Of a stretch of 64,000 bases of DNA, positions 25,592-62,870 are shown one piece after another. The notes under the pieces are model-generated. The model saw only the letters and a program-made list of their open reading frames with translations, made no database searches and was not told the DNA's origin. Where the stretch lies: contig NZ_KQ948144.1 in assembly GCF_001513955.1 (NCBI RefSeq), forward strand, positions 750,853 through 814,852, given 5' to 3'. Source of the stretch: Streptomyces pseudovenezuelae (GTDB lineage Bacteria; Actinomycetota; Actinomycetes; Streptomycetales; Streptomycetaceae). Both the position numbers and the translations under genes were made by a program. Every line of letters begins with the position of its first letter. The stretch's first letter is position 1.

Positions 25592-25608
25592 CACAGGCCG
25601 TCGCTCTC

Positions 25609-27753: not shown

Positions 27754-27874
27754 ACGTCCTCCTCGCGCCCGCACCCGTGCGCCGATCCCATACGACCGCG
27801 CCCCACCCCCAGCTCTCCGCGTGCCGCACCGGCGCGCAGTCACATCAGCCCGTCCTCGTCCCAAGGAGTACGTG

Positions 27875-40610: not shown

Positions 40611-40740
40611 CCGAGCCCGAGCGGACCCCGCCTCATCTCCGCCTCGTAGTCACTCGTCACCGGTCGCGAGAAAGTCCGGCCGGCAGGGCAGTCGAACCCC
40701 CTTCCCCGCCCGTCTATACGGGGGAACGAGGGAGGGCGCA

Positions 40741-43708: not shown

Positions 43709-43940
43709 GACGTTGAGTCACCGATCGCCGCCGGATTCCCGCTCTGCCCAGGGGTGTGGCCGTGCGGGAACCCGCGGCGCTGGGAATCGCCTGCCCGGCC
43801 CGTCGGGGGAGTACACCCGGTCCGGCGGGGCGTGACGGGCGTACTCAGGGGGTAAAAGCGGTCTCATCCAGGTCTTGACAGGAGACGTTTCGGGCGGAGA
43901 GACGTATCGGAGCAGTGGAGGGGAGAGAGGCGGGTCGGCA

Positions 43941-44957
43941 GTGGGGAGTGGGTATGACGGTCCGGTACCGGGCGCCACGGCGCCGCTTTCCGGCGTACGG
44001 GTACGTGGCGACGCCGCGGTGAACGCGCCGACCGAGGCGGCGGATCCGTTCGCGCATCCCGCGCTCTTCTACCGCGACGAGCGCGAGTACCTGGCCGCAG
44101 TGGTGCCGTTCGTGCACAAGGCGCTCGCCGCCGGGGAACCGGTCGCCGTGGCCGTGCCCACCGAGAACCTGCGGCTGCTGAAGGCGGAGATCGGCGCCGA
44201 GCAGGCCGTACGGTTCCTCGACATGCGGGAGGCCGGGCGCAACCCCGGCCGGATCATCCCCGGGGTGCTGCGCGCCTTCGCCGACGCCCAGCCGCCCGGC
44301 ACCCGGGTGCGGATCGTCGGGGAACCGATCTGGGCCGGCCGCTCGGCCGTCGAGTACCCCGCGTGCGTCCAGCACGAGGCGCTGATCAACGCCGCCTTCC
44401 AGGGCCGCGAGGTCACCATCCTGTGCCCCTACGACACCCGCCGCCTCGACCCGCAGGTCGTCGCCGACGCCCACGCCACCCACCCCGTCGTCGTCGACGC
44501 CGGCTCCGGGCGGGAGGAGGAGAGCGGACGGTACGACTTCGAGGCCGTGCACGCCCGCTACAACGCCCCGCTGCCCCCGGCCCCGGACGTGGCCGCCCAC
44601 GCCTTCGTCGCCGATGTGCTCGGCGAGATCCGGCACTTCGCGTCCGACGCGGCCGAGCGGTTCGGGCTCGTGCGGCCCCGGCTCGACGACCTGGCGCTGG
44701 CCGTCGCCGAGCTGACCACCAACAGCGTGGTGCACGGCGGCGGTTCGGGCCTGCTCAGGGTGTGGGCCGAAGACGGGCATGTGGTGTGCGAGGTCCGCGA
44801 CCAGGGACACCTCACCGATCTGCTGGCCGGCCGCCGGCCACCCTCGCGGGACCAGTTCGGCGGCCGCGGCCTGCTCGTCGTCAACCTCGTCGCCGACCTC
44901 GTGCGCGTGCACACCGGGCCGGACGGCACGACCGTCCGCTGCTGGTTCGCCCTCTGA
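43941..44957 (+). CDS. MEDS-domain RsbW-like histidine-kinase-fold anti-sigma/serine kinase
   Basis: About 338 residues. The first domain (HPALFYRDEREYLAAVVPFV to VTILCPYDTRRLD) is the MEDS/DcmR-type sensory fold. The second (LDDLALAVAELTTNSVVHGG, CEVRDQGH, GRGLLVVNLVADLV) is an HATPase_c fold with the N, G1 and G2 boxes of RsbW-like kinases. Such proteins phosphorylate STAS antagonists or hold sigma factors. The start is uncertain: I use GTG 43941, behind GGAGAGAGG; TTG 43875 and GTG 44019 are alternatives. Confidence 0.78.
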   Translation: MGSGYDGPVPGATAPLSGVRVRGDAAVNAPTEAADPFAHPALFYRDEREYLAAVVPFVHKALAAGEPVAVAVPTENLRLLKAEIGAEQAVRFLDMREAGRNPGRIIPGVLRAFADAQPPGTRVRIVGEPIWAGRSAVEYPACVQHEALINAAFQGREVTILCPYDTRRLDPQVVADAHATHPVVVDAGSGREEESGRYDFEAVHARYNAPLPPAPDVAAHAFVADVLGEIRHFASDAAERFGLVRPRLDDLALAVAELTTNSVVHGGGSGLLRVWAEDGHVVCEVRDQGHLTDLLAGRRPPSRDQFGGRGLLVVNLVADLVRVHTGPDGTTVRCWFAL

Positions 44958-45140
44958 CCACCGAGGCCCGCATGTCACGGCCACCGGTCACGGCGGGACC
45001 TGTGCGGGATGGCCGAACTGCGCCGGTCGCAGCGGCCCCGGCCCCCGCTTGACCTGCGTGTTCGTTTCGCCGTACGCCCGTGTGGGCAGGGTTCGGGCAG
45101 CGTTGGCCCGGTCAAGGCCTCGGGTGGGGGGAGCGCGGCG

Positions 45141-46019
45141 GTGCCCGATCATGTGCGCACGGCGGACGGACGACGATTACGGGTGGAGGTCTCGGGGGAC
45201 CCGCACGGACGTCCCGTGTTCCTCCTGCACGGCATGCCGGGCAGCCGGGTGGGGCCCAAACCCCGTTCGATGTTCCTCCACCAGCGCGGCGCGCGTCTCA
45301 TCAGCTACGACCGTCCGGGGTACGGCGGTTCGGACCGTATGCCGCGCCGCCGGGTGGCCGACGTGGCCCAGGACGTCGCCGATGTCGCCGACGCCCTGGA
45401 ACTGGACCGGTTCGCGGTGGCCGGCCGGTCCGCGGGCGCCCCGCACGCCCTCGCCTGCGCCGCGCTGCTGCCCGGCCGGGTCACCAGGGCGGCCGCGATG
45501 GTCGGTTGGGCCCCGCGCGACGCCGAGGGCCTGGACTGGTACGCCGGGATGGCGCCGTCCAACGTCGCCGCCCTGAGCACGGCCGCCACCGACCCCGAGC
45601 GGTTCGCCGCCGGGATCATCCCGCGCTCCGCCGCCATCCGCAGCGATCCAGCGCGTCTGCTGGAGGAACTGCGCGAGGACCTCACCGCCGACGACCGGCT
45701 GATCGTCTCGGACAACACCATCCGCTCGATGCTGCTGCGCAACTACCGTGAGGCGCTGCGGACTTCACCGTACGGCTGGATCGACGACGCCATCGCCCTC
45801 ACCGCGTCCTGGGGCTTCGACCCGGCGCGGATCAAGGTGCCGGTGCTGCTGTGGCACGGCAAGGACGACGCCTTCTCGCCGGCCTCGCACGCCTCCTGGC
45901 TCGCCGACCGCATCCCGCGTGCCACGGCCGTCCTGGAACCCACCTCGGCCCATTTCGCCGCACTGCGGGCGCTGCCGGCGGTACTGGACTGGCTGCTTGC
46001 CGACGTGATGGCGCATTGA
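45141..46019 (+). CDS. Alpha/beta-fold hydrolase
   Basis: A 292-residue hydrolase: HG in VFLLHGMPGSRVG (oxyanion region), DRPGYGGSD, the nucleophile elbow GRSAGAPH (Ser near residue 94), the acid in LWHGKDDAFSP and the His in PTSAHFAAL. The GRSAG elbow fits GxSxG. GTG at 45141 has GGGGGAG eight bases upstream; the open frame starts earlier, but that part is low-complexity. The substrate is unknown. It ends at the edge of a repeat tract. Confidence 0.82.
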   Translation: MPDHVRTADGRRLRVEVSGDPHGRPVFLLHGMPGSRVGPKPRSMFLHQRGARLISYDRPGYGGSDRMPRRRVADVAQDVADVADALELDRFAVAGRSAGAPHALACAALLPGRVTRAAAMVGWAPRDAEGLDWYAGMAPSNVAALSTAATDPERFAAGIIPRSAAIRSDPARLLEELREDLTADDRLIVSDNTIRSMLLRNYREALRTSPYGWIDDAIALTASWGFDPARIKVPVLLWHGKDDAFSPASHASWLADRIPRATAVLEPTSAHFAALRALPAVLDWLLADVMAH

Positions 46020-46532: not shown

Positions 46533-49500
46533 TCACACCGACAGCGGCTCCAGGTCCCGGTAGATCCGTCGTTCGCGGCTCGCCAGCAGGGTGATGCCGT
46601 TGTCCTCCCCGAGCAGCAGGCGCAGCTCCGCCATCGCCTCGTCCCGCAGGGCGCGGGCCTCGCCGTCGCGGCCCAGGGCCCGCAGGGTGAGCCCCAGGTT
46701 GGTGACCACCGCGAGCGTCTCGGGGTGGTGGCCGCCGAGCGCCTCGCGCAGCACCGGCAGCGCCGCCTCGTCGCGTTCCCGCGCCTCCTCGTAACGGCCC
46801 TGGTCGTAGAGGACGTTGGCGTAGTTCACGCTGCAGAACACGGCGTGCGGATGGTGCGCTCCCAGCACCTCCGCCATCCGGGGGAGCACCTTCAGGAACA
46901 CCGCCTCCGCCTCGTCCAGGTCCCCGCAGCCCCAGTGGAAGATCCCCAGGTTGTTCAGGGCCGCCTGGGTGTACGGGTGGGCCTCGCCCGGCACCTTCAT
47001 GTACTCGGCGAGCACCTCCCTGGCCACCTCGCGCCCCCGGTCCCGTTCGTCCGCCGCGAACAGGTCCGCCGCCAGGTTCAGGTCGCAGGCCAGCGAGTCG
47101 GGTGTCGGGGCCGTGTACTGGTCCTTGTACTGCTTGCGGGTCGCCTCGGTGAGCCGGCGGGCGTCCTCCAGCTGGCCGTTGCGGCGCAGCGACACCGCAA
47201 GCGACTTGGCGCAGCGCAGGGTGCCGGGGAACTCTCTGGTGAGGATCCGTTTGTGGGCCGCGTACGTCCGGGACAGGATCGACACCGACTCCGCGTACCG
47301 CCCTACCTCCCTGAGGTCACGGCCGAGGCACTCGGCCGAGGCCAGCGTGTACGGGTGGTCGGGACCGAGGATGGCCATGCGCCGGTCGAGCGTGTCCTGG
47401 TCGATGCCGCGTGCCTCGCCGTAGTTGCCCACCATCCGCAGGGCGAGGGCGAGGTTGTTGGCCGCGCTGAGGGTGCGCGAGTGCGACTCGTGGAAGATCT
47501 CGCTGAAGCCGGTGTGCGCCTCCTTGGCCAGCCCGACGGCCTTGGTGTACTCCCCGAGGGCGGCCAGGTCGCTGGAGAGTCCGGACATGGTGGCGTATGT
47601 GTGCGGGTGCTGCTCGCCCAGTTCGCGGCGCTGGCGTTCCAGCAGGTCCTCGCCGATCTCCCGGGCCTCCACGTAACGCCCTTGTGAGCGCAGCACGTTG
47701 GCGAGGTGGAAGCGCAGGTAGAGGTAGTAGACGTCGTCCTCGCCGAGCATCGGCTTCCAGTGCTGGAGCAGGTCCTCCGCCAGGCGCCGGGCGGCCAGGA
47801 AGTCACCGCGCTTCCACTGGTAGCGGACCCGGTCGATGAGCAGCCGACGGGTGTCGGCCTCACGGCAGTTGCGGGCGTCGGAGGCCGCCAGGTGCGGCCA
47901 GATGACGGCGAACCGGGGCCAGGTCGTCGGGTCGTCTATGGGCTCGTCGCCGTCGGGCCGGGCGCCCGCCAGGACGGTGTGCACGACATGCCGGGCCTCC
48001 CGCTGCCTGTCCTCCGGCATCTGGGAGCGGATCACCGCCTGCACGAGCCGGTGCACCTGGAGGCTGTTGGTCTTCTGGTCGACCTTGGCGAGCGCGAACC
48101 GGCCGATCTCCCGGATGACCCGGCCGAGCAGCAGACTCTCCTGCAGCGAGGGGTCGTACGGCTTGAGGGCCGCGATCATCTCCTTGCTGTAGAGCAGCTG
48201 CTGGGAGATCGGCTCGGGCGCGAGGAAGGCGCACAGCTGCAGCAGCCGTACCGCCGCGGGTGATCGTTTCTCCAACTGCTCGATGGAGACGTTCCAGGTC
48301 GCCGCGACCGTGCGCGGATAGTCGGGCGGCTGGTTGAGGTCCAGGACCTCGGTGGTCTGACGGGCCAGCTGCCGCAGGTAGTCCTCGATGGGGGTGGCGG
48401 TCTCGGCCAGCCAGGCCGCCGCCTGTTCGACCGCGAGCGGCAGGTCGCCGACGGCCTCCGCCACCCGGTCGGCGTCCTCGGCCGACAGCCCGCCCTCGCG
48501 ACGCCGGGTCAGGTGCTCGATGCTCTCCTGGCGTTCGAAGACGTCGATCTGCTGGGACGCCCCGTGCTGGGACCAGGTCTGGTTGCGGGAGGTGACGAGG
48601 ATGTGGCCGCCGTCCCCGGTGGGGAAGTAGCGGGTGAGCTCCGCGGGATTGCCGGCGTTGTCGAAGACCAGGATCCAGCGCTTGGTGGGCAGCCCCCGGG
48701 ACAGCCGCTGCACGGCTTCCTGGCTGGCCTTCGTCATGTCCTCCTCGGTGCCCACCGCGCCTATCAGCGGCGCGAGTTCGGCGAGCGAGGCGACCACGTC
48801 GTCGATGTGCTCGGCGGATATCCACCAGACCAGGTCGTAGTCGGCCATGAACCGGTGCACGTACTCGATGGCGAGCTGTGTCTTGCCCACGCCGCCCAGG
48901 CCGAACAGCGCCTGGGGCTGCGGCGGCCCGGACAGGTCGCCGAGCTGGGTGCGGATGCGGTCCATGATCGAGGTCCGGCCGGTGAAGGTGGTGTTGCGCT
49001 GGGGCGCGTTCCAGATGCCGGGGGTGATGCCGGGGAAGCGGGGCGCCGAGGGGCTGCTCTCCGCCTGCTGCAACGGCAGTTCCAGTGCCCGCTGGAGTGC
49101 GGCCACGCACTCCGTCTCGTCGAGCCGGTGCAGGTCGGCGCACGGCTCCGGGAGCGGGACCTCCTCGACGCGCAGCGGCACCACCGAGCCGCGTACGGCG
49201 TCCGGGGTCCGCTCGCCGAGGGCGCGCCACACGGAGTCGGCGTACCGGGACTCCTGGAAGGTCTTCGACAGCAGCACCACGGTGTGGGCGGTGGTCTCCG
49301 CCGGCTCGACCGGCCCGGTGGATATCTCGTGCAGGGTGACGTCGCAGCCCGCCCGATTGAGGAGGTACTCCACCCAGTCGGCCCACATCCGCTTCTCCGC
49401 CGCGTACGCCACCACGACGTCGGCCACGCTGGTCAGCGGCCGGCGCCTGAGGTAGGCGTCCCGGCAGCGCAGCCGGACCGGTTCGGGGATCTGCGGCAGT

Positions 49501-50453
49501 GAGGTGACCTCGCGGTCGGAGATCACGGCGGTGAGCCGCTCGAAGGCGGACAGCAGCGAGTTGGCGATGCCGCTCTCGTCCCCGACGGTGGCGAGCGTCT
49601 CCTCGTAGGCGTAGTAGGGGCGGTAGGGGATCTCGACGTTGCCCCAGTAGGCGCTCAGCTCCTCCTGGCTCAGCGGCCGGCCGTCCGCCCCCTTGGGCAG
49701 TCCCTCGAACCGCATCCGGGCCAGCGCGCGGCCGGCGTCGACCTTCTCCTTCTCGCCCTCGTCGATGCGCATCGGCACCGGCAGGACCCGTATCCGCCGC
49801 GGCCGGTACCCCTCCTCGACACTGCGGGCGACCACCGCCGCGCCCTCCAGCGCCTGGTCGCTCAGGGTGAAGCAGTCCACCAGGACGTCGGGCATCTCCA
49901 TGGTGCAGATGTCGGCGCTGTCCGACAGACCGGTGCGGCTGTCGATCAGGACGTAGTCGTACGTCGCCTTCATGCTGGCCCGCAGTGCCCTGAGGAAGGT
50001 GCCGCCGCCGAGACGCTCGTAGAAGTTGTCCCACTCGAAGGAGGTGACAGCCGTCGAGTAGGCCCGGTCCTGGCGGCCGGCGGACAGGAAGTCCAGGGAG
50101 CCGCCCTCGGGGAAGTGCAGGTCGAAGCGCTCGGGACGGATGGACACCGCGTGCTGCTCGACCTGGGCGTGGGACAGGTGCCAGTCGTCGGGGCGCTGGG
50201 TGTTGGTGGTCGCGGCCCAGGCGAAGTCCTGGATGATGTTGATGACGCCCGGCGTCGCGGACAGCGCCTTGGGGTCGAGGAACGGGTGGAAGAAGCGGTG
50301 CAGGCCCGGTGCCTCCAGGTCCCAGTCGACGGCGAGGACCCGCTTGCCGTTGGCGGCCAGGATCCAGGCGGTGTTGGCCAGCGCCATGGTGCGCCCCGTG
50401 CCGCCTTTGTACGAATAGAAAGTGATGACACGTCCGTCGCGCGGGCCCGTCAT
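46533..50453 (-). CDS. fxsT: FxsT: multidomain ATPase with TIR-like, NB-ARC and TPR regions
   Basis: A 1306-residue protein of the FxSxx-COOH system. Residues 1-300 are a MinD/ParA-like domain with a deviant Walker A (FYSYKGGTGRTMALANTAW). Residues about 335-455 form a TIR-like domain (VVVAYAAEKRMWADWVEYLL, VVLLSKTFQESRYADSV). Then comes an NB-ARC STAND NTPase (GLGGVGKTQLAIEYV near 515-530, WILVFDNA, PLAVEQAAAWLA), and from about 830 to the end tetratricopeptide repeats (EHPHTYATMSGLSSDLAALG and repeats). The start overlaps the fxsC stop (ATGA). The architecture is that of a signal-transducing STAND protein with TPR sensor; its role in RiPP biology is unknown. Confidence 0.88.
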   Translation of the reverse strand: MTGPRDGRVITFYSYKGGTGRTMALANTAWILAANGKRVLAVDWDLEAPGLHRFFHPFLDPKALSATPGVINIIQDFAWAATTNTQRPDDWHLSHAQVEQHAVSIRPERFDLHFPEGGSLDFLSAGRQDRAYSTAVTSFEWDNFYERLGGGTFLRALRASMKATYDYVLIDSRTGLSDSADICTMEMPDVLVDCFTLSDQALEGAAVVARSVEEGYRPRRIRVLPVPMRIDEGEKEKVDAGRALARMRFEGLPKGADGRPLSQEELSAYWGNVEIPYRPYYAYEETLATVGDESGIANSLLSAFERLTAVISDREVTSLPQIPEPVRLRCRDAYLRRRPLTSVADVVVAYAAEKRMWADWVEYLLNRAGCDVTLHEISTGPVEPAETTAHTVVLLSKTFQESRYADSVWRALGERTPDAVRGSVVPLRVEEVPLPEPCADLHRLDETECVAALQRALELPLQQAESSPSAPRFPGITPGIWNAPQRNTTFTGRTSIMDRIRTQLGDLSGPPQPQALFGLGGVGKTQLAIEYVHRFMADYDLVWWISAEHIDDVVASLAELAPLIGAVGTEEDMTKASQEAVQRLSRGLPTKRWILVFDNAGNPAELTRYFPTGDGGHILVTSRNQTWSQHGASQQIDVFERQESIEHLTRRREGGLSAEDADRVAEAVGDLPLAVEQAAAWLAETATPIEDYLRQLARQTTEVLDLNQPPDYPRTVAATWNVSIEQLEKRSPAAVRLLQLCAFLAPEPISQQLLYSKEMIAALKPYDPSLQESLLLGRVIREIGRFALAKVDQKTNSLQVHRLVQAVIRSQMPEDRQREARHVVHTVLAGARPDGDEPIDDPTTWPRFAVIWPHLAASDARNCREADTRRLLIDRVRYQWKRGDFLAARRLAEDLLQHWKPMLGEDDVYYLYLRFHLANVLRSQGRYVEAREIGEDLLERQRRELGEQHPHTYATMSGLSSDLAALGEYTKAVGLAKEAHTGFSEIFHESHSRTLSAANNLALALRMVGNYGEARGIDQDTLDRRMAILGPDHPYTLASAECLGRDLREVGRYAESVSILSRTYAAHKRILTREFPGTLRCAKSLAVSLRRNGQLEDARRLTEATRKQYKDQYTAPTPDSLACDLNLAADLFAADERDRGREVAREVLAEYMKVPGEAHPYTQAALNNLGIFHWGCGDLDEAEAVFLKVLPRMAEVLGAHHPHAVFCSVNYANVLYDQGRYEEARERDEAALPVLREALGGHHPETLAVVTNLGLTLRALGRDGEARALRDEAMAELRLLLGEDNGITLLASRERRIYRDLEPLSV

Positions 50454-51781
50454 GCTTCTCCTCCGTGGTCGGATCCGCCTTCGGGGTACGGCGGCTGGAT
50501 GGGGCCCAGCAGACGGGGCCTGGGCACGTGCGGACCCGGCGGCGGATGGGCCTCCGCGTGTTTCAGGTACTGCCGGGTGGTGTGCGCCACGACGGCGGGC
50601 AGCACGTCGGTGAACGCCTTGAGCGTGGGGACGCCGTTGACCGCGGTACGGCAGTCGGTGCGTCGGCCGCGCTCCAGCAGCAGGGGCAGGGTCCGCTCGA
50701 ACTCTTTGGTCAGGCGCTGGCCCTCGTCCCCGTGGCACTGCAGGTCGGCCCGGTTCCAGGGGACGACGACGCTCACCCACGGCTCGGCCTGGGAGTCGAA
50801 CGCCTTGAGCCGGCGCCGCTGTTCCTCGTCCGTCAGCGTCCACCGGTCCACCAGCAGGATGCGCGGGCGGCCGGTCTTGCCGCCCTCCTCGCCGGCGTCG
50901 GCCGTGAGGGGCCCTTCGGTGTCCTCGTCGTCGAAGGAGGAGACCGTCGGCCGGTAGTCCAGGGAGCGGATCAGCTCCTCCGCCAGTGCGGGCAGCGGGC
51001 GGGTCGACTCGGAGTGGTACGGGTTCCAGTCCAGCGGGTCCTCGCCGTACGGGCGCCGGTCCCGGTCCTCGGGAACACTGTCGAGGGTGGGCGCGGCCAC
51101 CGTCAGATGGATGTGCCGCGGTTCCTCGCCGCGCGGCCGGAACGCGCTCGGGGTGGTCTCGTAGTCGCGCAGCCGGCCGGGGGGCAGCGGCGACTCCTCG
51201 GCCACCTGGACGATGCGCTGGGCGAGGGTGAGGACGGTCTCCTCGTACTCGTCGCGCAGTCTGCTGAGCTTGATGAGCCCGTAGAAGCCGTTGGTCGCGT
51301 AACGGTCGCCGAAGGTCGTGCGGTCCAGGTGTATGTGGCGTATGGAGTCCGGCAGTTGGTGGAAGTCGACGCGCGTCCACAGGGCCGGGACAATGGCGGA
51401 CACCTCGCGTCCGCCGACGGCCCTGGCGTGCAGGATGCGCTCGTTGAACGCGAACAGTTCCCGGCCGCACATCTCGCTGGTGAAGTACCGCGGGGACAGC
51501 AGCGGTATGAAGACCCGGCAGCGGGCCAGGTTCTCGCTGAGCTTGCGCGGCCAGCCGACCCCGGATCCCATCTCCCGGTCTATGAAGCCGACTTCGGAGC
51601 CGGCGGGCAGGTCGGTGAGCGCCATGATGTGGTTGCACAGGTCCCGGTAGAGCTGGTGCACCCAGTGGTCGGGGTCGCCGCCGCCCGATCCCCACGGCGG
51701 GGTGTGGGCGTAGCTGAGGAAGAAATAGGGCTGCCCCTCGGCCGAGGCCTGCCCCCACTCCCCGTCAGGTGTGTCCAACAC
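50450..51781 (-). CDS. fxsC: FxsC: TIR-like domain protein
   Basis: A 443-residue protein whose N-terminal half is a TIR-like fold: PYFFLSYAHTP, VGFIDREMGSGVGWPRKLSE, CRVFIPLLSPRYFTSEMCGRE. The C-terminal half (about 225-440) has VAAPTLDS, ILLVDRW and SVVVPWNR and looks like a second Rossmann-type region. It matches the FxsC family found next to FxsB. GTG at 51781 is the first possible start; TTG at 51778 has slightly better spacing from AGGGGGG. It is coupled to fxsT and lies 86 bp after the AAC(3)-like gene. Confidence 0.85.
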   Translation of the reverse strand: MLDTPDGEWGQASAEGQPYFFLSYAHTPPWGSGGGDPDHWVHQLYRDLCNHIMALTDLPAGSEVGFIDREMGSGVGWPRKLSENLARCRVFIPLLSPRYFTSEMCGRELFAFNERILHARAVGGREVSAIVPALWTRVDFHQLPDSIRHIHLDRTTFGDRYATNGFYGLIKLSRLRDEYEETVLTLAQRIVQVAEESPLPPGRLRDYETTPSAFRPRGEEPRHIHLTVAAPTLDSVPEDRDRRPYGEDPLDWNPYHSESTRPLPALAEELIRSLDYRPTVSSFDDEDTEGPLTADAGEEGGKTGRPRILLVDRWTLTDEEQRRRLKAFDSQAEPWVSVVVPWNRADLQCHGDEGQRLTKEFERTLPLLLERGRRTDCRTAVNGVPTLKAFTDVLPAVVAHTTRQYLKHAEAHPPPGPHVPRPRLLGPIQPPYPEGGSDHGGEA

Positions 51782-51867
51782 GCCCCCCTGCGCGTCGGTG
51801 ACCCCGTAGCCGGAGCCACCTGGAACCGGAAGAACAATGTGCCCGACCGTGAGGCCTTACGGATCGC

Positions 51868-52719
51868 TTATTTCACGTCATTCCGGAGACGAGATCTGGA
51901 CAGTTGATCGCGTACGTCGTCGACGGCGGCCCGCATCCCGAACAGTGTGACGGGTCTTCCGGCCCACTCCCGTCGCAGGAGGAGTGCATCCGGAAGCCGT
52001 GCGCCGGCCTCCGCGAAGTCACCGTCGTACAGGGTCAGATCCTCGTAGGTGACCCAGTTGCCCCGGTGGCCCACCACGCAGCGGTACAGCCTCGGGGGTG
52101 GTGGCGGGGTCATGCGGTACTCGGCGAGGTGGAAGGCGCTGCACACCTCGAATCCCATGCGCAACAGCAGGACCTGGGCGTCCGCGGCGTACAGCCGGGC
52201 GAGCGGTGAGCGCTCGCCGAGGTGACAGTGCGGGTCGTGTCCGGCGAGCAGTTCGCCCGCCCGCGGGCCGATCGCGGCCAGCGAGGTCTGCGGGTGGGCA
52301 CTGCGCACGGCTCCCGGCGTGGTCCGCACACACTCGGCCAGCGCCCCCATCGACGGGCAGGGGGTGGAGTCCGGTGCGAAGGGCGGCATCGACGCGCGGA
52401 ACTGCTCGGCCTCCTGCGCGCTGAGGTGCGCGACCAGGGCCTGGTGGGCGCGGGAGCTGTCCGAGTTCTCAGGGGTGAAGGCGGGCACGACGAGCGTGCC
52501 ATGGGGGCCGAGCGTTTCGAGCAGCGCGTCACGGACCCGGGTGGGGGATAGGCCGGTGCCGCTCAGGGAGGCGTGCACCATGAGGGGGCGCTCCGACCGG
52601 ATGGGCAACTCGGCCAGCAGGCCCACCAGTTGGTGCTCCTGTGCGCCTGGGTCGGCGGCCCTGCGGGTGTCACGCCGGGCGGCGCCCGGAGCTTCCGCCG
52701 CGAAGGCCGTGCCCGTCAC
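51868..52719 (-). CDS. AAC(3)-family N-acetyltransferase-like protein
   Basis: A 283-residue protein of the aminoglycoside 3-N-acetyltransferase fold: MVHASLSGTG, GTLVVPAFTPENS, GALAECVRTTPGAVRSAHPQ, GERSPLARLYAADAQVLLL and AFHLAEYR, in family order with the conserved histidines. In an FxSxx-COOH locus its substrate is more likely the peptide or a related metabolite than an aminoglycoside, though resistance activity is not excluded. The GTG start overlaps the fxsB stop (GTGA). Confidence 0.82.
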   Translation of the reverse strand: MTGTAFAAEAPGAARRDTRRAADPGAQEHQLVGLLAELPIRSERPLMVHASLSGTGLSPTRVRDALLETLGPHGTLVVPAFTPENSDSSRAHQALVAHLSAQEAEQFRASMPPFAPDSTPCPSMGALAECVRTTPGAVRSAHPQTSLAAIGPRAGELLAGHDPHCHLGERSPLARLYAADAQVLLLRMGFEVCSAFHLAEYRMTPPPPPRLYRCVVGHRGNWVTYEDLTLYDGDFAEAGARLPDALLLRREWAGRPVTLFGMRAAVDDVRDQLSRSRLRNDVK

Positions 52720-54905
52720 GGCCGTCCCGCGATCGCATCCCACTCCGCCCGCAGTTCGGCCGCCAGCACCTCGCCGCTCTCGGTGAGGTCGCGGTCGGGC
52801 AGTTCGGCCAGAGCGGCCAGGGTGCGGCCGGCCCGGGCCAGCGCCCTCACGCCCTCGGGGGTCCCGCGGCCCCAGTACGCCACGTCGCCGAGCGCGTCGA
52901 CGACCTCGGTGAGCAGCCGGCCGGCCTGGTTGCCGAGCACATGCAGATCGGTTGTCGCGCGCAGGGCGGCCAGCCGGGCCCGGCGTCCCAGCCGGGGCAA
53001 CTCGCGTACGAACAGGTCCGGTTCGAAGTCGACGGCCACCCCGAGTCCGCCCAGGCCGTCGGTGGCGAGCCGGACTCCGGCCCCGGCGACGAGCGGGGTG
53101 ACGGCGTCCACCCGCAGGGCGTTCCGGTCGTCCTCCGCCGCGGGCCCCCGCTCCGCCCGCAGCTCGTACGCGGCACGCAGCCGCTCGCGGAACGCGGCGA
53201 GTTCGTCCGGGGTCAGCGGGTCGGTGACGGGAGCGGGGTAGACGGCACGGCGGGGATCCGCGTCGTCGATGAGCAGCGGCTCGGCGGCCGCCACCTTCAG
53301 CACCGACAACGGGCGCCAGAAATCGGTGAGTTGATCGCGGACGGCAAGGCGGGTCCCGTCGGCGGTGTGCACGTCGAGTCCCCGCGCGCTCACGACGGCC
53401 TCCACCCGTCCCGGCGCCGGCAGGGTCAGGGTGCCCAGGGTCGGCAGGTGCATCTCCCGGTCCCACTGCTCCCAGGCGAGCCGGAGCGGGGCATGCGCGT
53501 GCACGGCCGCCGCCACGGCGACGCGGGCGAAGCGGGCCGCGGTGATGCGGGCAGCCTCGGCGCTCCGCAGAGCGGCGCGCAGGTAGGGGTGGGACAGCAC
53601 CCGGTTGAGATGCTCCGCGGTGCTCCGGTCCGCGTCCAGCCGGAGGAGGGCGGGCCAGGTCTCGTCCCAGTCGGGGTGCCCGGCCAGCCGCTGGTTGGCG
53701 TAGGCGAGGAGGGTCCGATCCAGCTCCTGCCGGGCGAACCGCAGGGCCTCGGGGTCGAGGACGGCGGGCGAGAGGGAGCGGTCGGTGATCCGCTCGGCGA
53801 TCCCGTCGACGAGGGCACGCAGGTCCTCGCAGAACACCGAGGGGTTATCGAACTCCCGTTCGCTGCTGTACCGGTGGGCGTAGAGACCGCCGCCGCAGGA
53901 CTGGACGACCGGGCATTCCTGGCAGGTTCTGGAAAGCCCCAGCAGGCCCCGTTGCCGGGCCTGCACTCCGGGATGCCGGGCCACTTGCTCGAAGGTGTGT
54001 TCATCGACGTGGTAGCCCGTGGCGGGCGCCCCGTCGTAGGCCGTCTTGAGCGAGTCCACCTGCTCGAAGGAACCGTCCGTCTCCACGACGGCCAGGTCGG
54101 AGGGCGCCAGTCCCATGGCCTCGGTCAGGCTGGGTCCGCCCCGCAGGGTGCTGAGCACCGAGTCGAAGGTCCGCACCCGCACGGTGCGGCCCTGCTCCGT
54201 CCAGCGGTCGAACACGGCCAGCAACCACTCGGCGTACGCGGTCGCCGAACCGGAGGAACCTCGCGGCGGCGGGGTGTCCCAGGTGGAGTGGGGCAGCAGG
54301 TAGTCGATCCGGGGCGGCGAGAGCGCGGTCAGCGCGTCGTGCACGGCGATGGGGTCGTTCGCCACGTCCACCGTGCAGAGCAGCCCGCCGAAGAGGTGGC
54401 GGTACTCCTCGGTGCGCAGCAGGTCGATCGCGCGCAGCACCCGGTGGTAGCTGCTCCGGTATCTGCGGTCGAGCCGGTGCCGGTCATTTGCGGCTTGATC
54501 GCCGTCCAGTGAGACGCTCACGGCGACGTCGTACTCCCGGAAGACGTCCAGGTGGCGGCGGCTCAGCTGTACAGCGTTGGTGTGGATCTTGAGCTTGAGC
54601 CTGCTGACGCCGGCGAAGGCCTGGCTGAACTCGTCGCAGATGGCGCGCAGTCGGGCGGGGCCGGCCAGCAGGGGCTCACCGCCGTGCAGGATCACGGTGA
54701 CGTCGGCCAGGTCGTGCTCGCGTGCGTACGTGGCGAACCGCGCCGCGGTCCGACTGACCGTGTCCTGCCCGATCACGACCGGGCGGGTCTTCCAGCTCTT
54801 GTCCGCGTGCTCGTACACATAGCAGTGGTCGCACGCCAGATCACATCGACTGTGAATCTTCAGGACGAGTTGCTGGAGTGGGTGTTCCCCCAGAGAGACG
54901 GTCAC
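52716..54905 (-). CDS. fxsB: FxsB: radical SAM/SPASM cyclophane-forming maturase with degenerate HExxH-type extension
   Basis: A 729-residue protein. The radical SAM cluster motif Cys21, Cys25, Cys28 (CDLACDHC) starts a barrel with VTVILHGGEPLLAG and VSVSLDGDQAANDRHR. A SPASM region with CQECPVVQSCGGG and FCEDL ends near residue 370. FxsB-type enzymes join the Phe ring to the residue two positions on in FxS-type precursors. Residues about 420-729 look like the peptide beta-hydroxylase extension found in some FxsB proteins, but where HExxH should stand the sequence reads RLGRRARLAAL (about 638-648), so metal binding is lost. GTG at 54905 has no good RBS. It follows fxsA after a hairpin. Confidence 0.88.
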   Translation of the reverse strand: MTVSLGEHPLQQLVLKIHSRCDLACDHCYVYEHADKSWKTRPVVIGQDTVSRTAARFATYAREHDLADVTVILHGGEPLLAGPARLRAICDEFSQAFAGVSRLKLKIHTNAVQLSRRHLDVFREYDVAVSVSLDGDQAANDRHRLDRRYRSSYHRVLRAIDLLRTEEYRHLFGGLLCTVDVANDPIAVHDALTALSPPRIDYLLPHSTWDTPPPRGSSGSATAYAEWLLAVFDRWTEQGRTVRVRTFDSVLSTLRGGPSLTEAMGLAPSDLAVVETDGSFEQVDSLKTAYDGAPATGYHVDEHTFEQVARHPGVQARQRGLLGLSRTCQECPVVQSCGGGLYAHRYSSEREFDNPSVFCEDLRALVDGIAERITDRSLSPAVLDPEALRFARQELDRTLLAYANQRLAGHPDWDETWPALLRLDADRSTAEHLNRVLSHPYLRAALRSAEAARITAARFARVAVAAAVHAHAPLRLAWEQWDREMHLPTLGTLTLPAPGRVEAVVSARGLDVHTADGTRLAVRDQLTDFWRPLSVLKVAAAEPLLIDDADPRRAVYPAPVTDPLTPDELAAFRERLRAAYELRAERGPAAEDDRNALRVDAVTPLVAGAGVRLATDGLGGLGVAVDFEPDLFVRELPRLGRRARLAALRATTDLHVLGNQAGRLLTEVVDALGDVAYWGRGTPEGVRALARAGRTLAALAELPDRDLTESGEVLAAELRAEWDAIAGRP

Positions 54906-55007
54906 TTAGCACACGCTAGCGCGCGCCGTCACTACCGCACGCCCCGAATCGGCCAATTGGGTTACCGCACAGGTGTGTTGTGGCATCAGATCGAACGCCC
55001 AGCGGAT

Positions 55008-55044
55008 CGACCGCGCGCCCCATCGTGGACGGTGTGCGCGGTCG
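55008..55044 (-). terminator. Hairpin between fxsA and fxsB, possible attenuator
   Basis: CGACCGCGC and GCGCGGTCG pair perfectly (9 bp) around a 19-base loop, about 20 bases after the fxsA stop. A second small stem (CGGAC-A-GTCCG) precedes it. There is no U-run. Such a structure after a precursor-peptide gene usually lets more peptide mRNA accumulate than maturase mRNA. Confidence 0.5.
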
Positions 55045-55061
55045 CGGCCGGACTGTCCGCC

Positions 55062-55214
55062 CTACAGAGAGGAGTTGAACCCTGCCTGGTCTCCCGTGAC
55101 CCGGTCGGCGGCCTTGGTCGTGGCAGGGGAACCGATCGCACCGAGCGGGGTGTGCTGTCCGTGCGGGGCGGAGCCGGCGGCCGTCGTGTGTTCCGTGACC
55201 GTCTGAGCCTTCAT
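55062..55214 (-). CDS. fxsA: FxsA: FxSxx-COOH precursor peptide
   Basis: A 50-residue peptide that starts MKAQTVTEH, contains PLGAIGSPATTKAADRVTG and ends FNSSL at the C-terminus, exactly the Phe-x-Ser-x-x-COOH signature that defines the family. Residues Phe46 and Ser48 are the expected sites of the cyclophane cross-link made by FxsB. GGAG lies 11 bases before the ATG at 55214, a little far but acceptable. Gene order fxsA-fxsB-AAC(3)-fxsC-fxsT on one strand supports it. No leader cleavage site can be read, and no exporter or protease is in the locus. Confidence 0.87.
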   Translation of the reverse strand: MKAQTVTEHTTAAGSAPHGQHTPLGAIGSPATTKAADRVTGDQAGFNSSL

Positions 55215-55418
55215 CTGTCTGATGTCTCCTTCCGTGGGGACCGGCGTGTCCCCGGCCCAAGGAGGCCAGAGGCCCGGTGTCGGAAAACGAACCATGAGAC
55301 AGAGACAACCCGGTTTTAGGCGGACGATACCGCAGCCGAAGGGTTCCTGAGCATGGCTGGGGGGCTCGTGCGCGCCCATACTCGAATGTCCGGGGGAGCT
55401 TGCTGTCGGGGGTGGACC

Positions 55419-56333
55419 ATGAGGGTCGGTATTCCGGGGCCGGGGGTCACGTGGAAGGACGACGACCTCCCCCCACTCTTCCGCGTTAACGATCAACTCG
55501 CGATCGCCCATCAGAGTGAATCGTTCCGTGCCGTCCGCGCCCAGTTGGTCGTCCTGCTGGCGGCCACGACCGCGGCCATGCTGGCGGAACGCCTGGACAG
55601 CCATGTCCCGGCACTCCTGGCCGCGCTGCTGTACGCCCTGACCATCGCCATCGGTCTGCACACCACGCGCCGGCGTGCCCGCGCGCGCTGGCAGGCCCAT
55701 CGGGCCGTCGCCGAGATGCTGAAGTCCCTGGCGTGGCAGTACATGGTGCACGGGGGTGTCTTTCACTCCCAAGTGGCCAACGCGGACGCGCTGTTCGCGG
55801 AGCGGGTCGAGGAACGGCTCAGGGAGATGCGCAAGGTGGGCTGGGAGGACTCCAGGAACGACGCCCACGCCCGCGGCGAGGGGCAGATCACGCCGGTGAT
55901 GCGGCAGGTGCGGGCGAAGGCCTTCTCGGTGCGGCGGGACGTCTACCTGCGGGAGCGATTACTGGAGCAGCACGCCTGGTACCGACGGCGTGCCGCGCAG
56001 GCCCACCGCGCCTCCGTGCAGTGGTCGTCCGTGACCGCCGTACTGACCCTGCTGGCCCTGCTCGCCGCCGTGCTCAGGGCGGCCGGGCTGCTCGGCGGCT
56101 GGGACCTGACCGGCGTGCTCAGCGCGGCCGCCGCGGCCGGCGTGGCCTGGCAGGAGGTGCGCAGGCACCGGCCGCTGACCTACGCGCACTCGCTGGTCGA
56201 GCAGGATCTGGAGACCCTGAGGGTCGAGATGAGCACGACCGTGACCGAGGACCGGTGGGCCCTCGCGGTGGCGGAGGCGGAACGGCTGGTGTCGCCGCAG
56301 CACTCGGACTGGCTGGGACGATTCGGCAATTGA
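55419..56333 (+). CDS. SLATT/DUF4231-type membrane protein
   Basis: A 304-residue protein with two hydrophobic hairpins, residues about 43-80 and 205-245, separated by a helical cytosolic region (AVAEMLKSLAWQYMVHGGVF, VRRDVYLRERLLEQHAWY). This arrangement and the WY-rich middle are those of DUF4231 proteins in the SLATT group, proposed as pore-forming effectors in nucleotide-signal-dependent conflict systems. ATG at 55419 follows GGGGGTGG. Codon 181 is TTA. It is divergent from fxsA and ends 21 bp from the stop of the SLOG-like gene on the other strand. Confidence 0.72.
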   Translation: MRVGIPGPGVTWKDDDLPPLFRVNDQLAIAHQSESFRAVRAQLVVLLAATTAAMLAERLDSHVPALLAALLYALTIAIGLHTTRRRARARWQAHRAVAEMLKSLAWQYMVHGGVFHSQVANADALFAERVEERLREMRKVGWEDSRNDAHARGEGQITPVMRQVRAKAFSVRRDVYLRERLLEQHAWYRRRAAQAHRASVQWSSVTAVLTLLALLAAVLRAAGLLGGWDLTGVLSAAAAAGVAWQEVRRHRPLTYAHSLVEQDLETLRVEMSTTVTEDRWALAVAEAERLVSPQHSDWLGRFGN

Positions 56334-58762: not shown

Positions 58763-59800
58763 TCAGGTGGCCAGCGGGTCCAGGGACAGCGGCTCGATCC
58801 GGCCCTCCAGCATGTACCCCAGTCCCTGTACGGCGCAGACGTCGGGCCGTTCCGCGATGTGCACCGGCATCCCGGTGGCGTGCCGCAGCATCTGGTCGAG
58901 CCCGGGGAGCAGCGCGGAACCGCCGACCATCATGATCCCGCGGTCGGCGAGGTCGGCCACGAGGTCGGGCGGGCAGTTGCGCAGCACCCGGCCGATGCCG
59001 TCGAGCACGGCGGTCAGCGGGGTCTCGATCGCGTCCCGTACGGCGGCGGTGTCGACCTGCACGGAACGGGCCAGTCCGGTGGCGACGTCCCGTCCGTGGA
59101 TCTCGGTGGAGGCGGGACCCTGCGAGGTGAGGCCGTTGCCGGAGAGGGCGAGCTGGAGCGGCCGTACGGACTGACTGGGCAGCATCAGCTCGTGCTCGTG
59201 ACGCAGGTGCTGGACGATCGCGTGATCGACGGCCTCGCCGCCGACCGGGATGCGCTCGGCGGTCACGATCGACCCGAGGGAGAGCACGGCGACCTGGGTG
59301 GCGGCGGCCCCGCACACCATGATCATGGTGGCCTCGGCGCGCTCGACGGGCAGTCCGCAGCCGACGGCGGCCGCGATGAGGGTGTCCACGAGCTCCACGC
59401 GCCGCGCCCCGAGTCCCACGAGGGTCTCGATCGCCGCGCGCTGGGCCAGTGGGTCGGCGTCGTGCGGAGTGCAGGCGGCGGCCCGCAGCCGGGGCTTGCG
59501 GCGCAGGTTGCGACGGATCTTGTCGCCGAGCAGATGGCGCAGCATGCGCTGGGCCATCTCGATGTCGACGACGGTGCCGCCGGAGACGGGCCGCACGACA
59601 CGGATGTAGTCGGGGGTGCGCCCCGTCATCTTCTCGGCGAACTCGCCGACCGCGATCAGCGCGCCGGTACGGGTGTTCACGGCGGCGGCCGACGGCTGGT
59701 CGACGACGAGCCCGGCCCCCTTCACGTACACCCGCGTCCTCGCCGCGCCCAGGTCGACGGCGAAGTGGCAGCGGCGCAGCTGCTCCAGACTGGCGGTCAT
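58763..59800 (-). CDS. MreB/Mbl-like actin-family protein
   Basis: A 345-residue actin-fold ATPase: FAVDLGAARTRVYVKG (phosphate 1), VVRPVSGGTVVDIEMAQRML, MIMVCGAAATQVAVLSLG (phosphate 2) and IMMVGGSALLPGLDQML (adenosine). It is a divergent MreB paralogue; Streptomyces usually has MreB, Mbl and one such shorter, divergent protein. It may act in spore wall synthesis. It converges with the ScbR-like gene (21-bp gap). The ATG at 59800 is preceded by GAGGACC. Confidence 0.85.
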   Translation of the reverse strand: MTASLEQLRRCHFAVDLGAARTRVYVKGAGLVVDQPSAAAVNTRTGALIAVGEFAEKMTGRTPDYIRVVRPVSGGTVVDIEMAQRMLRHLLGDKIRRNLRRKPRLRAAACTPHDADPLAQRAAIETLVGLGARRVELVDTLIAAAVGCGLPVERAEATMIMVCGAAATQVAVLSLGSIVTAERIPVGGEAVDHAIVQHLRHEHELMLPSQSVRPLQLALSGNGLTSQGPASTEIHGRDVATGLARSVQVDTAAVRDAIETPLTAVLDGIGRVLRNCPPDLVADLADRGIMMVGGSALLPGLDQMLRHATGMPVHIAERPDVCAVQGLGYMLEGRIEPLSLDPLAT

Positions 59801-60016: not shown

Positions 60017-61390
60017 TCACCCCGATTCCCCGGTGGGCGTGATCACCCCGAGCTCCACCAGGTCCTGCGGCCGGATCCGCAGCTGGTCCGCCGTCGGCTC
60101 GACCTCCCGCGGCGCCCGCTTCAGGATCGCCGCCGCCAGTTCCGGCGCGATCACGGAGAAGTAGCTGTCCGGTGTGGCGTACGTGCGCCCGGGCGCCGCC
60201 AGGGCCAACGCCCCGCCGGAGCCGCCCTCGCCGATGAGGAGGGAGGTGATCGGGGTGCGCGCGGAGGCGACCGCGGTGAACAGGTCGGCGATCGCCGCGC
60301 CCACGCCCTGGCGCTCGGCCTCCGCGTCATTGGCCGCGCCCGGGGTGTCCACCAGCGTGAGCACCGGGATGCCGAGGCGGTCCGCGAGACGGATCAGCCG
60401 GGTGGCGGTGCGATAGCCGGCGGGGCGGGTCGCCGTGCCGGTCTGGGCGGCGTACGCGACGGTACGGCCCCCGTGCTCGCCGAAGCCGCACAGCATGCCC
60501 GGGTCGGTGCCTCCGCAGCGGTCGCCGGAGACGGCCGCGCGGTGGGTGAAGTAGGCGTCCAGGTAGGCCCGTGCGCGCGGCCGCTCGGGCGAACGGGCGC
60601 GGCGGACCGCGTCCCACCCGGTGGCGGGCAGGTCGGTCGCGCCGAGCGGGGCCGGGACGGGGGCGGGCGCCGCGTCGGGGGTACGGCCGTCCGTGGGCAG
60701 GTCGCCGGACCCGCCCGACGGCCTCGCCAGCAACCGCAGCCACCTCCCCAGCGTCTCCCGCAGCTCCCGCGGCCGTACGACCGCGTCCGCCGCACCCGCC
60801 GCCACCTGCGCCTCGGCCGTGTAGGCCGCCGGGTCCGCGTCCGCGGGCCGCACCCGGGAGCCCGCGAAGCCGACCTGGGCGCCCGCGAGGGCGAGGACCA
60901 CGTCGGCGCCCGCGCCCAGGGTGGCCCAGCCGCCGCCCGTGGTGGGATCGCGCAGCACGGCGATCTGGGGCAGGCCCGCCGCCCTGGTGAGCGCCGACTG
61001 ACGCGCCACACGCTGCAGTTGGGTCAGGGCGAGCATGCCCTCCTGCATACGGCTGCCCCCGGTGGCCACCAACGGGACGACCGGCAGCCGGTGTTCGCGG
61101 GCATACGTGTACGCCGCCTCCAGACGGTCCCCGGTGCGTTCGCCCAGCGAGCCGCCGAGAAAGCCGAACTCGAAGGCGATCAGGACGGCCCGGGTGCCCT
61201 CGACCCGCGCGGTGCCGCAGACGACCGACTCCCGCTCGCCGGTGCGCTCGGCGGCGCGGGCGCACGAGGCGTCGTAACCCTGCCAGGCGAGCGGTCCGTC
61301 CGGCTTCGACTGCCGTTCGGGGTACGGGATTTCGCGGAAGTCGTCGGCGAGCAGCGCGACCATCTCGCGTGCGGATTGGCGCTCAGTCAT
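60017..61390 (-). CDS. Fused acyl-CoA carboxyltransferase (AccD-AccA type)
   Basis: A 457-residue fusion of the two carboxyltransferase halves. The N-terminal AccD-like part has VLIAFEFGFLGGSLG and LVATGGSRMQEGMLAL; the AccA-like part (about 255-457) has RAYLDAYF, RLADRLGIPVLTLVDTPGA, LLIGEGGSGGALALA and YFSVIAPELAAAIL. They are joined by a Pro/Ala linker (210-245). It lacks the zinc-finger of bacterial AccD. Next to MatB and a permease it may carboxylate or decarboxylate a malonyl/acyl-CoA, but biotin carboxylase and carrier subunits are not in view. It overlaps matB by eight bases. Confidence 0.85.
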   Translation of the reverse strand: MTERQSAREMVALLADDFREIPYPERQSKPDGPLAWQGYDASCARAAERTGERESVVCGTARVEGTRAVLIAFEFGFLGGSLGERTGDRLEAAYTYAREHRLPVVPLVATGGSRMQEGMLALTQLQRVARQSALTRAAGLPQIAVLRDPTTGGGWATLGAGADVVLALAGAQVGFAGSRVRPADADPAAYTAEAQVAAGAADAVVRPRELRETLGRWLRLLARPSGGSGDLPTDGRTPDAAPAPVPAPLGATDLPATGWDAVRRARSPERPRARAYLDAYFTHRAAVSGDRCGGTDPGMLCGFGEHGGRTVAYAAQTGTATRPAGYRTATRLIRLADRLGIPVLTLVDTPGAANDAEAERQGVGAAIADLFTAVASARTPITSLLIGEGGSGGALALAAPGRTYATPDSYFSVIAPELAAAILKRAPREVEPTADQLRIRPQDLVELGVITPTGESG

Positions 61391-62834: not shown

Positions 62835-62870
62835 GCTTCACCACTCCTAATCTGTTGTCGCCTGTCGGTC

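What the first reader, a model, noticed from the sequence alone, without database searches (positions are those of the whole stretch)
46533..55214. FxSxx-COOH RiPP locus with conflict-system-like partners
A 50-residue precursor ending FNSSL, a radical SAM maturase, an AAC(3)-like enzyme, TIR-like FxsC and a 1306-residue ATPase/TIR-like/NB-ARC/TPR protein form one leftward gene set. There is no exporter or leader protease, so the cyclophane peptide may act inside the cell, perhaps as a signal or ligand for the STAND protein. The biological role of these loci is, as far as I know, not established.
Basis: partly seen in the sequence, partly recalled or inferred. Interest (0 to 1): 0.75.

Follow-up and report, generated by a model that had tools for sequence, protein, structure and literature searches.

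The report
Stapled-peptide alarm system in Streptomyces

Summary
In detail: fxsA (50 aa...GFNSSL), fxsB (radical SAM/SPASM, TIGR04269), an AAC(3)-fold acyltransferase, fxsC (TIR) and fxsT (1306 aa: ParA-like, TIR-like, NB-ARC, TPR) lie on the minus strand at 46533-55214. The class is already in print: Kaur et al. 2020 (PMC7159879) describe 'standalone peptide-processing systems'. Added here: (1) The locus is larger. A divergent SLATT membrane-effector gene (55419-56333) is linked: 33 of 41 SLATT_3 places in 121 genomes of the genus lie within 12 kb of fxsB or fxsC (about 0.25 expected). A convergent alpha/beta hydrolase follows fxsT in 26 of 29 testable loci and in two other families. (2) AAC is fused to the HExxH peptide hydroxylase in 19 homologues, so it is probably a peptide-tailoring enzyme. 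(3) Precursors with tail F-[DNS]-[SA]-x-x lie upstream of fxsB in 26 of 26 related loci; the window's FxsB has lost its HExxH. (4) S. canus has a swapped fxsA-fxsB-aac tract; S. geranii lost these genes but keeps SLATT, fxsC and fxsT open, so the peptide is probably no required inhibitor. Best reading: the stapled peptide likely triggers STAND, then TIR, then SLATT. Function is untested.

The parts
55419..56333 (+). SLATT gene (304 aa; open frame from 55353): tandem SLATT_3 + SLATT_1, predicted membrane effector, divergent from fxsA
   Evidence: PF18184 160 bits, PF18181 128 bits; NF033610/NF033634 over cut-off; 33 of 41 SLATT_3 places linked to fxsB/fxsC; all-helical model pLDDT 83. Start chosen because L016 has an in-frame stop upstream of the aligned Met
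55320..55331 (-). GGTATCGTCCGC in the fxsA/SLATT intergenic region, shared by part of the relatives, possible promoter element of fxsA
   Evidence: alignment of 22 intergenic regions; present in several of them, not in all; promoter role inferred
55062..55214 (-). fxsA, 50-aa precursor peptide
   Evidence: similar precursors in 26 of 26 loci with complete fxsB; 7 other database proteins
55065..55079 (-). core codons F46-N47-S48-S49-L50; predicted Phe46-Ser48 cross-link
   Evidence: 28-precursor tally: F 28/28; next D14 N13 S1; then S24 A4; last residue L15 I6 V5 A1 S1; 21 of the 28 were found with a pattern that fixes F and S
52716..54905 (-). fxsB, radical SAM/SPASM peptide maturase
   Evidence: TIGR04269 579 bits; nearest solved structure ChlB radical SAM domain 9gm3, E 1.7e-77
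52740..53774 (-). FxsB C-terminal domain: beta-hydroxylase relative that has lost HExxH
   Evidence: NF040587 304 bits; HExxH is missing in the window, L015, L019, L031 and L067, kept in the own paralogue L048 (HEIQH), in f15 loci L054, L055, L056, L058 and f32 loci L064, L065
51868..52719 (-). AAC(3)-fold acyltransferase, predicted peptide-tailoring enzyme
   Evidence: PF02522 212 bits; closest solved structure FrbF 3sma; in 25 of 26 loci with complete fxsB; HExxH-AAC fusions
50450..51781 (-). fxsC, TIR protein with a second domain of open fold
51458..51460 (-). Glu108 codon, predicted NADase catalytic Glu (YFTSEMCGRE)
   Evidence: invariant in the 32 aligned of 37 FxsC held; aligned to the CxxE Glu of L7 and Roq1 TIRs, weak profile match E 0.18-0.37
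46533..50453 (-). fxsT, 1306-aa STAND protein
   Evidence: NF047398, NB-ARC, TIR_2, NF040586
49818..50432 (-). FxsT ParA/MinD-like domain with KGGTGRT variant P-loop
   Evidence: NF047398 138 bits; among the best conserved parts of the protein
49113..49418 (-). FxsT degenerate TIR-like domain
   Evidence: TIR_2 36 bits; least conserved part, no CxxE in the sequence
48348..48965 (-). FxsT NB-ARC with intact GLGGVGKT
   Evidence: PF00931; P-loop conserved in the 31-sequence alignment
46629..47834 (-). FxsT TPR array, inferred ligand sensor
   Evidence: TPR_12, TPR_10
45009..46019 (+). alpha/beta hydrolase, convergent with fxsT, conserved partner
   Evidence: PF00561 66 bits; next to fxsT in 26 of 29 testable loci, in the fetched f15 and f32 loci and own paralogue L048; GRSxG, D and H conserved over 36 sequences

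Best explanation
The locus encodes a seven-gene system in which the radical SAM enzyme FxsB is predicted to staple Phe46 to Ser48 at the tail of the peptide FxsA, and the finished peptide likely stays in the cell and switches on the sensor FxsT, which would then activate the TIR protein FxsC and, through its nucleotide product, the membrane protein SLATT. Shown: the seven genes, their domains, their linkage across genomes, and the fixed C-terminal F-x-[SA]-x-x tail. Inferred: the cross-link (ring of Phe to C-beta of residue +2, because Ser and Ala interchange there and both have a C-beta); acylation of the peptide by the AAC-fold enzyme; recognition of the free C-terminal carboxylate by the TPR repeats; NB-ARC-driven assembly that activates FxsC as an NAD+-consuming enzyme; opening of SLATT; and removal or trimming of the peptide by the alpha/beta hydrolase. 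The likely outcome is growth arrest or cell death in response to invasion (phage or plasmid), as in other TIR and STAND systems.
Against: No chemistry or phenotype is known for this locus. The FxsT-peptide contact is inferred only. SLATT is not near 12 of 44 high-scoring FxsB loci with FxsC, and 8 of 41 SLATT_3 places are unlinked, so it is not obligatory; in the class-wide draw 7 of 17 are unlinked. The AAC is missing in L045 and was not seen in the f15 and f32 loci. The distance test did not favour an FxsA-FxsB partnership: the FxsA leader tracked FxsT (partial rank correlation 0.37) more than FxsB (0.20); this may be phylogeny. The locus sits at a conserved place in many Streptomyces loci, less typical of mobile defence. 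No phage record matched FxsC. Foldseek alone gave no FxsC match with E <= 0.001 (best 2.2e-3, a plant TIR). S. geranii has two other FxsB genes, so it is not a clean null.
Confidence: 0.4

Rival explanations
1. Same wiring, different purpose: the peptide is an internal signal in Streptomyces physiology or development, and the TIR/SLATT arm adjusts NAD+ or membrane state rather than killing infected cells.
For: The locus lies between the same two neighbours in many Streptomyces loci; FxsC over cut-off in 45 of 121 genomes; no phage record matched.
Against: Present in about a third of the genus sample, several paralogous FxsB per genome (own genome has three), swapped cassette in S. canus, FxsC as part of conflict-type proteins on plasmids.
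Confidence: 0.25
2. The processed peptide is itself a toxin (or toxin-like effector) released by the system, as Kaur et al. put forward as one option.
For: Stated as 'peptide toxin or signal' in PMC7159879 section 24.
Against: No exporter domain reported for the neighbours scanned; tail is nearly constant between species; the zincin 'peptidase' of that model is an alpha-ketoglutarate hydroxylase (PMC12636437 passages; the same preprint reports that one relative, PflC, can cut peptides when the leader is absent) and its motif is lost here.
Confidence: 0.15
3. The modified peptide holds FxsT/FxsC off, like an antitoxin or guarded self-ligand, and loss of the peptide triggers them.
For: Precursor gene upstream of a STAND gene; a polymorphic maturase would fit a guard.
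Against: S. geranii L025 carries open SLATT, fxsC and fxsT frames with no fxsB or aac found and a shortened fxsA, though its genome has two other FxsB genes; 10 of 63 FxsC places have no FxsB within 12 kb (some may be contig ends).
Confidence: 0.12
4. Exported antimicrobial or pheromone RiPP using a general exporter; the other genes are neighbours by chance.
For: Some radical SAM cyclophane peptides are secreted natural products (recalled).
Against: fxsC stays near 44 of 48 high-scoring FxsB genes; fxsC, fxsT and the hydrolase stay with fxsB in other families.
Confidence: 0.08

Closest known systems
Standalone FxSxx peptide-processing systems with AP-ATPase and inactive MinD/ParA domain (Kaur et al. 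2020 eLife, PMC7159879; section 24 read, other passages)
   Same: FxSxx precursor, radical SAM/SPASM gene, NB-ARC/TPR protein with ParA-like and TIR domains in actinobacteria
   Different: Their core peptidase (HExxH) is lost here; the passages that I read name neither an AAC-fold enzyme nor SLATT for the FxSxx type (figures are not held); they do mention alpha/beta-hydrolase domains in related MoxR-vWA and GTPase systems
Triceptides and the FxsB/ChlB maturases (Phan and Morinaka 2022 and Morishita et al. 2024: seen only as references; ChlB domain structure 9gm3)
   Same: Radical SAM/SPASM homologue; Phe-x-Ser motif of the kind cyclised by MscB (PMC11002830 passages)
   Different: No hydroxylase activity expected; conflict-type partners; cross-link not tested
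Thoeris and other TIR-signal systems (recalled)
   Same: TIR protein with predicted catalytic Glu plus a separate effector
   Different: No PADLOC Thoeris hit; SLATT and a STAND sensor instead; a modified peptide as proposed input
Systems with SLATT effectors, such as DRT9-SLATT (PMC12483538 passages)
   Same: SLATT as predicted membrane effector
   Different: Neither nucleotidyltransferase nor reverse transcriptase among the neighbours scanned
AAC(3) aminoglycoside acetyltransferases and FrbF
   Same: Fold and conserved HP-TS, GERSP and HLAE stretches; FrbF is the closest solved relative
   Different: Below the AAC(3) cut-offs; genetically tied, and elsewhere fused, to peptide maturation

Membership tests
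FxSxx-COOH system (standalone type) | short precursor ending F-x-S-x-x-COOH | tested here: met
   ...FNSSL read directly; same kind of tail in 28 precursors
FxSxx-COOH system (standalone type) | precursor matches TIGR04268 | tested here: not met
   no hit; the model hits a peptide at the own third locus only
FxSxx-COOH system (standalone type) | FxsB maturase TIGR04269 | tested here: met
   579 bits, cut-off 370
FxSxx-COOH system (standalone type) | FxsC and NB-ARC/TPR protein with KGGVGR domain | tested here: met
   NF040588, TIGR04276, NF040586, NF047398 over cut-offs
FxSxx-COOH system (standalone type) | HExxH enzyme (called MPTase by Kaur et al.) | tested here: not met
   motif missing in the FxsB C-terminal domain; none reported for the neighbours scanned
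Triceptide (three-residue cyclophane RiPP) | C-C cross-link between aromatic i and C-beta of i+2 | not testable with these tools
   needs MS/NMR; S/A interchange at i+2 fits
Triceptide (three-residue cyclophane RiPP) | radical SAM/SPASM cyclophane synthase homologue with cluster cysteines | tested here: met
   HSRCDLACDHCY and SPASM cysteines conserved over 29 aligned FxsB; ChlB homologue
Thoeris | ThsA/ThsB recognised by PADLOC | tested here: not met
   no PADLOC hit for FxsC and no Thoeris hit for the other four proteins
VMAP/MoxR-vWA ternary system | MoxR AAA+ ATPase and vWA protein next to the locus | tested here: not met
   none reported for the window neighbours scanned
AAC(3) aminoglycoside resistance enzyme | reaches a curated AAC(3) cut-off | tested here: not met
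   109 bits against 270 (NF033082), the other four lower
TIR NADase | TIR fold | tested here: met
TIR NADase | catalytic Glu at the CxxE position | tested here: inconclusive
   Glu108 in 32 of 32 aligned, but its alignment to known TIRs rests on weak profile matches, E 0.18-0.37
TIR NADase | NAD+ cleavage or cyclisation | not testable with these tools
   assay needed
SLATT effector | SLATT profile over cut-off with hydrophobic helices | tested here: met
   PF18184, PF18181; two strong hydropathy peaks, about residues 83-105 and 222-249 in open-frame numbering
SLATT effector | pore formation | not testable with these tools
   predicted in the literature only

The most novel reading that the evidence does not exclude
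A radical-SAM-stapled, acyl-capped C-terminal peptide is the ligand of a bacterial NLR-like receptor: it activates a TIR enzyme whose nucleotide product opens a SLATT pore. That would be a Thoeris/CBASS-like alarm whose first messenger is a RiPP, used inside the cell rather than secreted, with the fxsA-fxsB-aac cassette exchanged between strains as an adaptable input module.
Probability: 0.25. Interest if true: 0.88.

Novelty: new variant of a known kind. Interest (0 to 1): 0.62.

Why it matters
FxsB-type radical SAM enzymes are common (79 of 121 genomes of the genus), and in the papers that I could see their peptides have no shown job. Tying the peptide to a STAND receptor, a TIR enzyme and, newly, a SLATT membrane effector gives a complete input-to-output circuit that can be tested gene by gene. 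If right, RiPPs would join nucleotides as internal immune messengers in bacteria. The HExxH-AAC fusions also warn that AAC(3)-annotated genes at such loci are probably not resistance genes.

Tried and rejected
Aminoglycoside resistance as the role of the AAC: rejected (no cut-off reached; FrbF closest; HExxH-AAC fusions). The zincin-peptidase model for peptide release: rejected here (HExxH lost; the enzyme class is a hydroxylase, although one relative, PflC, cuts peptides when the leader is absent). Mutual exclusion of hydrolase and HExxH: considered, dropped, because f15 and f32 loci have both. Leader-maturase co-divergence: tested on 25 loci; the leader follows FxsT more than FxsB, so not supported. 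SLATT structure search: no match with E <= 0.001, best rows unrelated helical proteins, so uninformative. FxsC C-terminal domain: matches cover residues 13-197 only, its fold stays open. FxsC in phages: no match. Sequence search of FxsC and SLATT against solved structures: only chance-level rows. Literature: FxSxx, FxsB, cyclophane+FxS, triceptide+SPASM, SLATT+radical SAM, SLATT+TIR+Thoeris, ChlB+cyclophane, triceptide+TIR domain, SLATT+CBASS, RiPP+STAND+TIR; I saw these listings and opened passages of six papers, and saw no report that links SLATT or an AAC to FxSxx. The library lacks most subscription papers; two that I asked for (on FxsB maturases and on radical SAM target peptides) are not held.

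Rows dropped and choices made: one search used only the 63 FxsC rows over the cut-off, all 119 FxsB rows and all 41 SLATT_3 rows; 'high-scoring' FxsB means 530 bits or more (48 rows), my own border. The chance figure assumes two FxsB per genome except in seven genomes. The identity tables leave out L014 (cut contig), L048 and L049. FxsT conservation leaves out L022, L046, L047, L050-L052. The FxsC alignment holds 32 of 37 (left out: L014, L024, L033, L043, L048). Of the 26 locus precursors, 21 were found with the pattern F.S.. and five by reading the interval, so the counts of F and S are partly by construction. In one search a pattern F.[SA].. with a ribosome-site filter over 20 loci gave 13 rows in 8 loci; I take 8 rows in 6 loci as precursors and 5 as chance. 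I looked at two of the five plasmid matches. In one search four of the five genomes asked for were held.

Full report
WHAT IS THERE. Curated models confirm fxsB (TIGR04269, 579 bits, cut-off 370), fxsC (NF040588 222 bits, TIGR04276 171 bits) and fxsT (NF047398 138 bits; NF040586 1013 bits); Pfam adds TIR_2 in FxsC and, in FxsT, a second weak TIR_2 (346-447), NB-ARC (497-702) and many TPRs. The AAC-like protein belongs to PF02522 (212 bits) but stays below the five AAC(3) cut-offs listed. FxsT's ParA region also matches PDC-M28B, a candidate defence family of PADLOC (74 bits). The window lies in a 9.6-Mb genome; FxsC is 94-95% identical to that of named Streptomyces loci (L014, L015, L037, L039), so the host is almost certainly a Streptomyces (inference).

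THE PEPTIDE IS REAL. TIGR04268, the model for such precursors, does not match it. But among the 34 related Streptomyces loci, each of the 26 with a complete fxsB has a similar precursor just upstream; 21 were found with the pattern F.S.. and five by reading the same interval. Over 28 precursors (26 loci, the window and the own paralogue L048) the fifth-last residue is Phe in 28, then D 14, N 13, S 1; then S 24, A 4; then A 21, S 4, three others; the last is L 15, I 6, V 5, A 1, S 1; the F and S counts are partly by construction. A pattern scan of 20 further loci gave 8 plausible precursors in 6 loci (L054 FNSSI, L058 three, L061, L065, L072, L073) and 5 rows that look like chance. The window peptide lacks a few residues between leader and tail compared with most of its nearest relatives. 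It has a ribosome-binding site and, upstream, a GGTATCGTCCGC that several relatives share.

THE LOCUS IS LARGER THAN REPORTED. The divergent neighbour at 55419-56333(+) is a tandem SLATT_3/SLATT_1 protein. Over 121 genomes of the genus, 33 of 41 SLATT_3 places lie within 12 kb of fxsB or fxsC; by genome the counts are 33 both, 7 SLATT only, 6 Fxs only, 75 neither, Fisher p 7e-17 (data); a rough estimate of chance is 0.25. SLATT is on the fxsB side in 24 and on the fxsT side in 8 cases, so this is not one inherited arrangement. In 296 genomes of the class, read by eye, 10 of 17 SLATT_3 places are within 9 kb of FxsC, one of them (G389, locus L054) in another family and on the same strand as fxsB; 7 are not. 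Twelve of 44 high-scoring FxsB loci with FxsC have no SLATT_3 near, so it is a common but not obligatory part.

On the other side, an alpha/beta hydrolase (45009-46019, +) follows fxsT in 26 of the 29 loci that hold an fxsT match and enough flank (misses L025, L046, L047), in the five f15 loci and two f32 loci fetched, and in the own paralogous locus L048. Its GRSxG motif, acid and His are conserved over 36 sequences. It was not seen in the f16 loci L059-L063, four of which have a short FxsB.

THE MATURATION ENZYMES. FxsB's nearest solved structure is the ChlB radical SAM domain (E 1.7e-77). Its C-terminal domain is related to the HExxH beta-hydroxylase: f15 loci (L054, L055, L056, L058), f32 loci (L064, L065) and the own paralogue L048 keep HExxH in the fused domain, whereas the window, L015, L019, L031 and L067 lack it. 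In f16 loci L060-L062 the hydroxylase is a separate gene. Kaur et al. called this enzyme a zincin peptidase; [quoted passage not shown] The AAC-fold enzyme is in 25 of 26 loci with complete fxsB (L045 lacks it) but was not seen in the f15 and f32 loci. In locus L072 and in the genome's own third locus L049 it is fused to the HExxH hydroxylase, and 19 of 26 homologues found with L072 carry PF02522 together with a HEFLH motif. With FrbF as closest structure, a peptide-acylating role is the simplest reading. Because the window clade keeps AAC but lost the hydroxylase, its acceptor is probably not the beta-hydroxyl (inference).

TWO NATURAL EXPERIMENTS. (1) Between S. sp. LUP47B (L015) and S. canus (L039), FxsC, the hydrolase, FxsT and SLATT are 99, 99, 96 and 95% identical, but FxsB is 69% and AAC 78%. 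Window against L039, in 500-base bins, DNA identity is 84-95% on both sides but 69-80% from 55500 to 52501 and 84% in the next bin; the only other low bin is the gapped intergenic stretch below 46500. A tract with fxsA, fxsB and part of aac was replaced, while the tail stayed of the F[DN]S[AS]L kind (FDSAL in L039, FNSAL in L015, FNSSL in the window). (2) In S. geranii L025, fxsB, aac and the hydrolase are not found and fxsA is cut short, yet SLATT, fxsC and fxsT are open frames. So the peptide seems not needed to hold these proteins off, which favours an activating ligand; but the genome has two other, short FxsB genes.

HOW IT LIKELY WORKS. Shown: parts, linkage, tail. Inferred: FxsB forms the Phe-x-Ser cyclophane; MscB makes C4(Phe)-C-beta(Ser) links (PMC11002830, passages), and S/A interchange here fits a C-beta target. 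AAC caps the peptide. The mature tail with its free carboxylate binds the FxsT TPRs, NB-ARC assembly activates the FxsC TIR, and its product gates SLATT, as Kaur et al. proposed for SLATT in other systems. The hydrolase may end the signal or trim the peptide. The likely biological setting is defence, but a physiological role is a serious rival.

WHAT IS KNOWN. PMC7159879 section 24 (that section read in full; other passages) already names standalone peptide-processing systems of this type and suggests that the peptide is a toxin or signal. I saw no report linking SLATT, the AAC-fold enzyme or this alpha/beta hydrolase to the FxSxx type in the searches listed, of a library that lacks most subscription papers and holds no figures.

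AGAINST MY READING. No experiment on this locus is known to me; FxsA leader distances follow FxsT more than FxsB; the conserved chromosomal position argues for a house-keeping side; SLATT is not near about a quarter of the high-scoring FxsB/FxsC loci; the predicted catalytic Glu rests on weak alignments.

Noticed in passing
window 16179-29590: Genes like those of chloramphenicol biosynthesis: aminodeoxychorismate-synthase-type fusion (16179-18239), CmlA-type diiron hydroxylase (18332-19927), AMP-binding/reductase protein (19950-23567), AMP-ligase (26308-27753) and CmlS-type halogenase (27821-29590); the pathway name is recalled from the CmlA/CmlS domain names.
   Followed up: no
window 58763-59800: An MreB/Mbl paralogue (365 bits) close to the fxs locus, with carboxyltransferase, acyl-CoA-ligase and MatC-type carrier genes (60017-63983) beyond it.
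   Followed up: no
L048 (own C1:520001-540000) and L049 (own C5:265001-285000): Two further FxSxx loci in the same genome: L048 with two FxsC N-terminal domains in a row and an intact HExxH; L049 with a short FxsB and an HExxH-AAC fusion.
   Followed up: partly
L058 83(+), 4680(+), 14172(-) (start positions): Three different FxSxx-type precursors (ending FTSSY, FQSAY, FQSAF) around one fxs locus of another family.
   Followed up: no
window 43875-44957: A MEDS sensor plus HATPase protein, possibly an anti-sigma-type regulator, near a sigma-70 region-4 gene at 40372-41262.
   Followed up: no
L074 5605-10179: Plasmid protein of 1524 aa fusing a SAV_2336 N-terminus, FxSxx-type TPRs and FxsC, next to an AAA ATPase and a protein with a sub-threshold caspase match.
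   Followed up: partly
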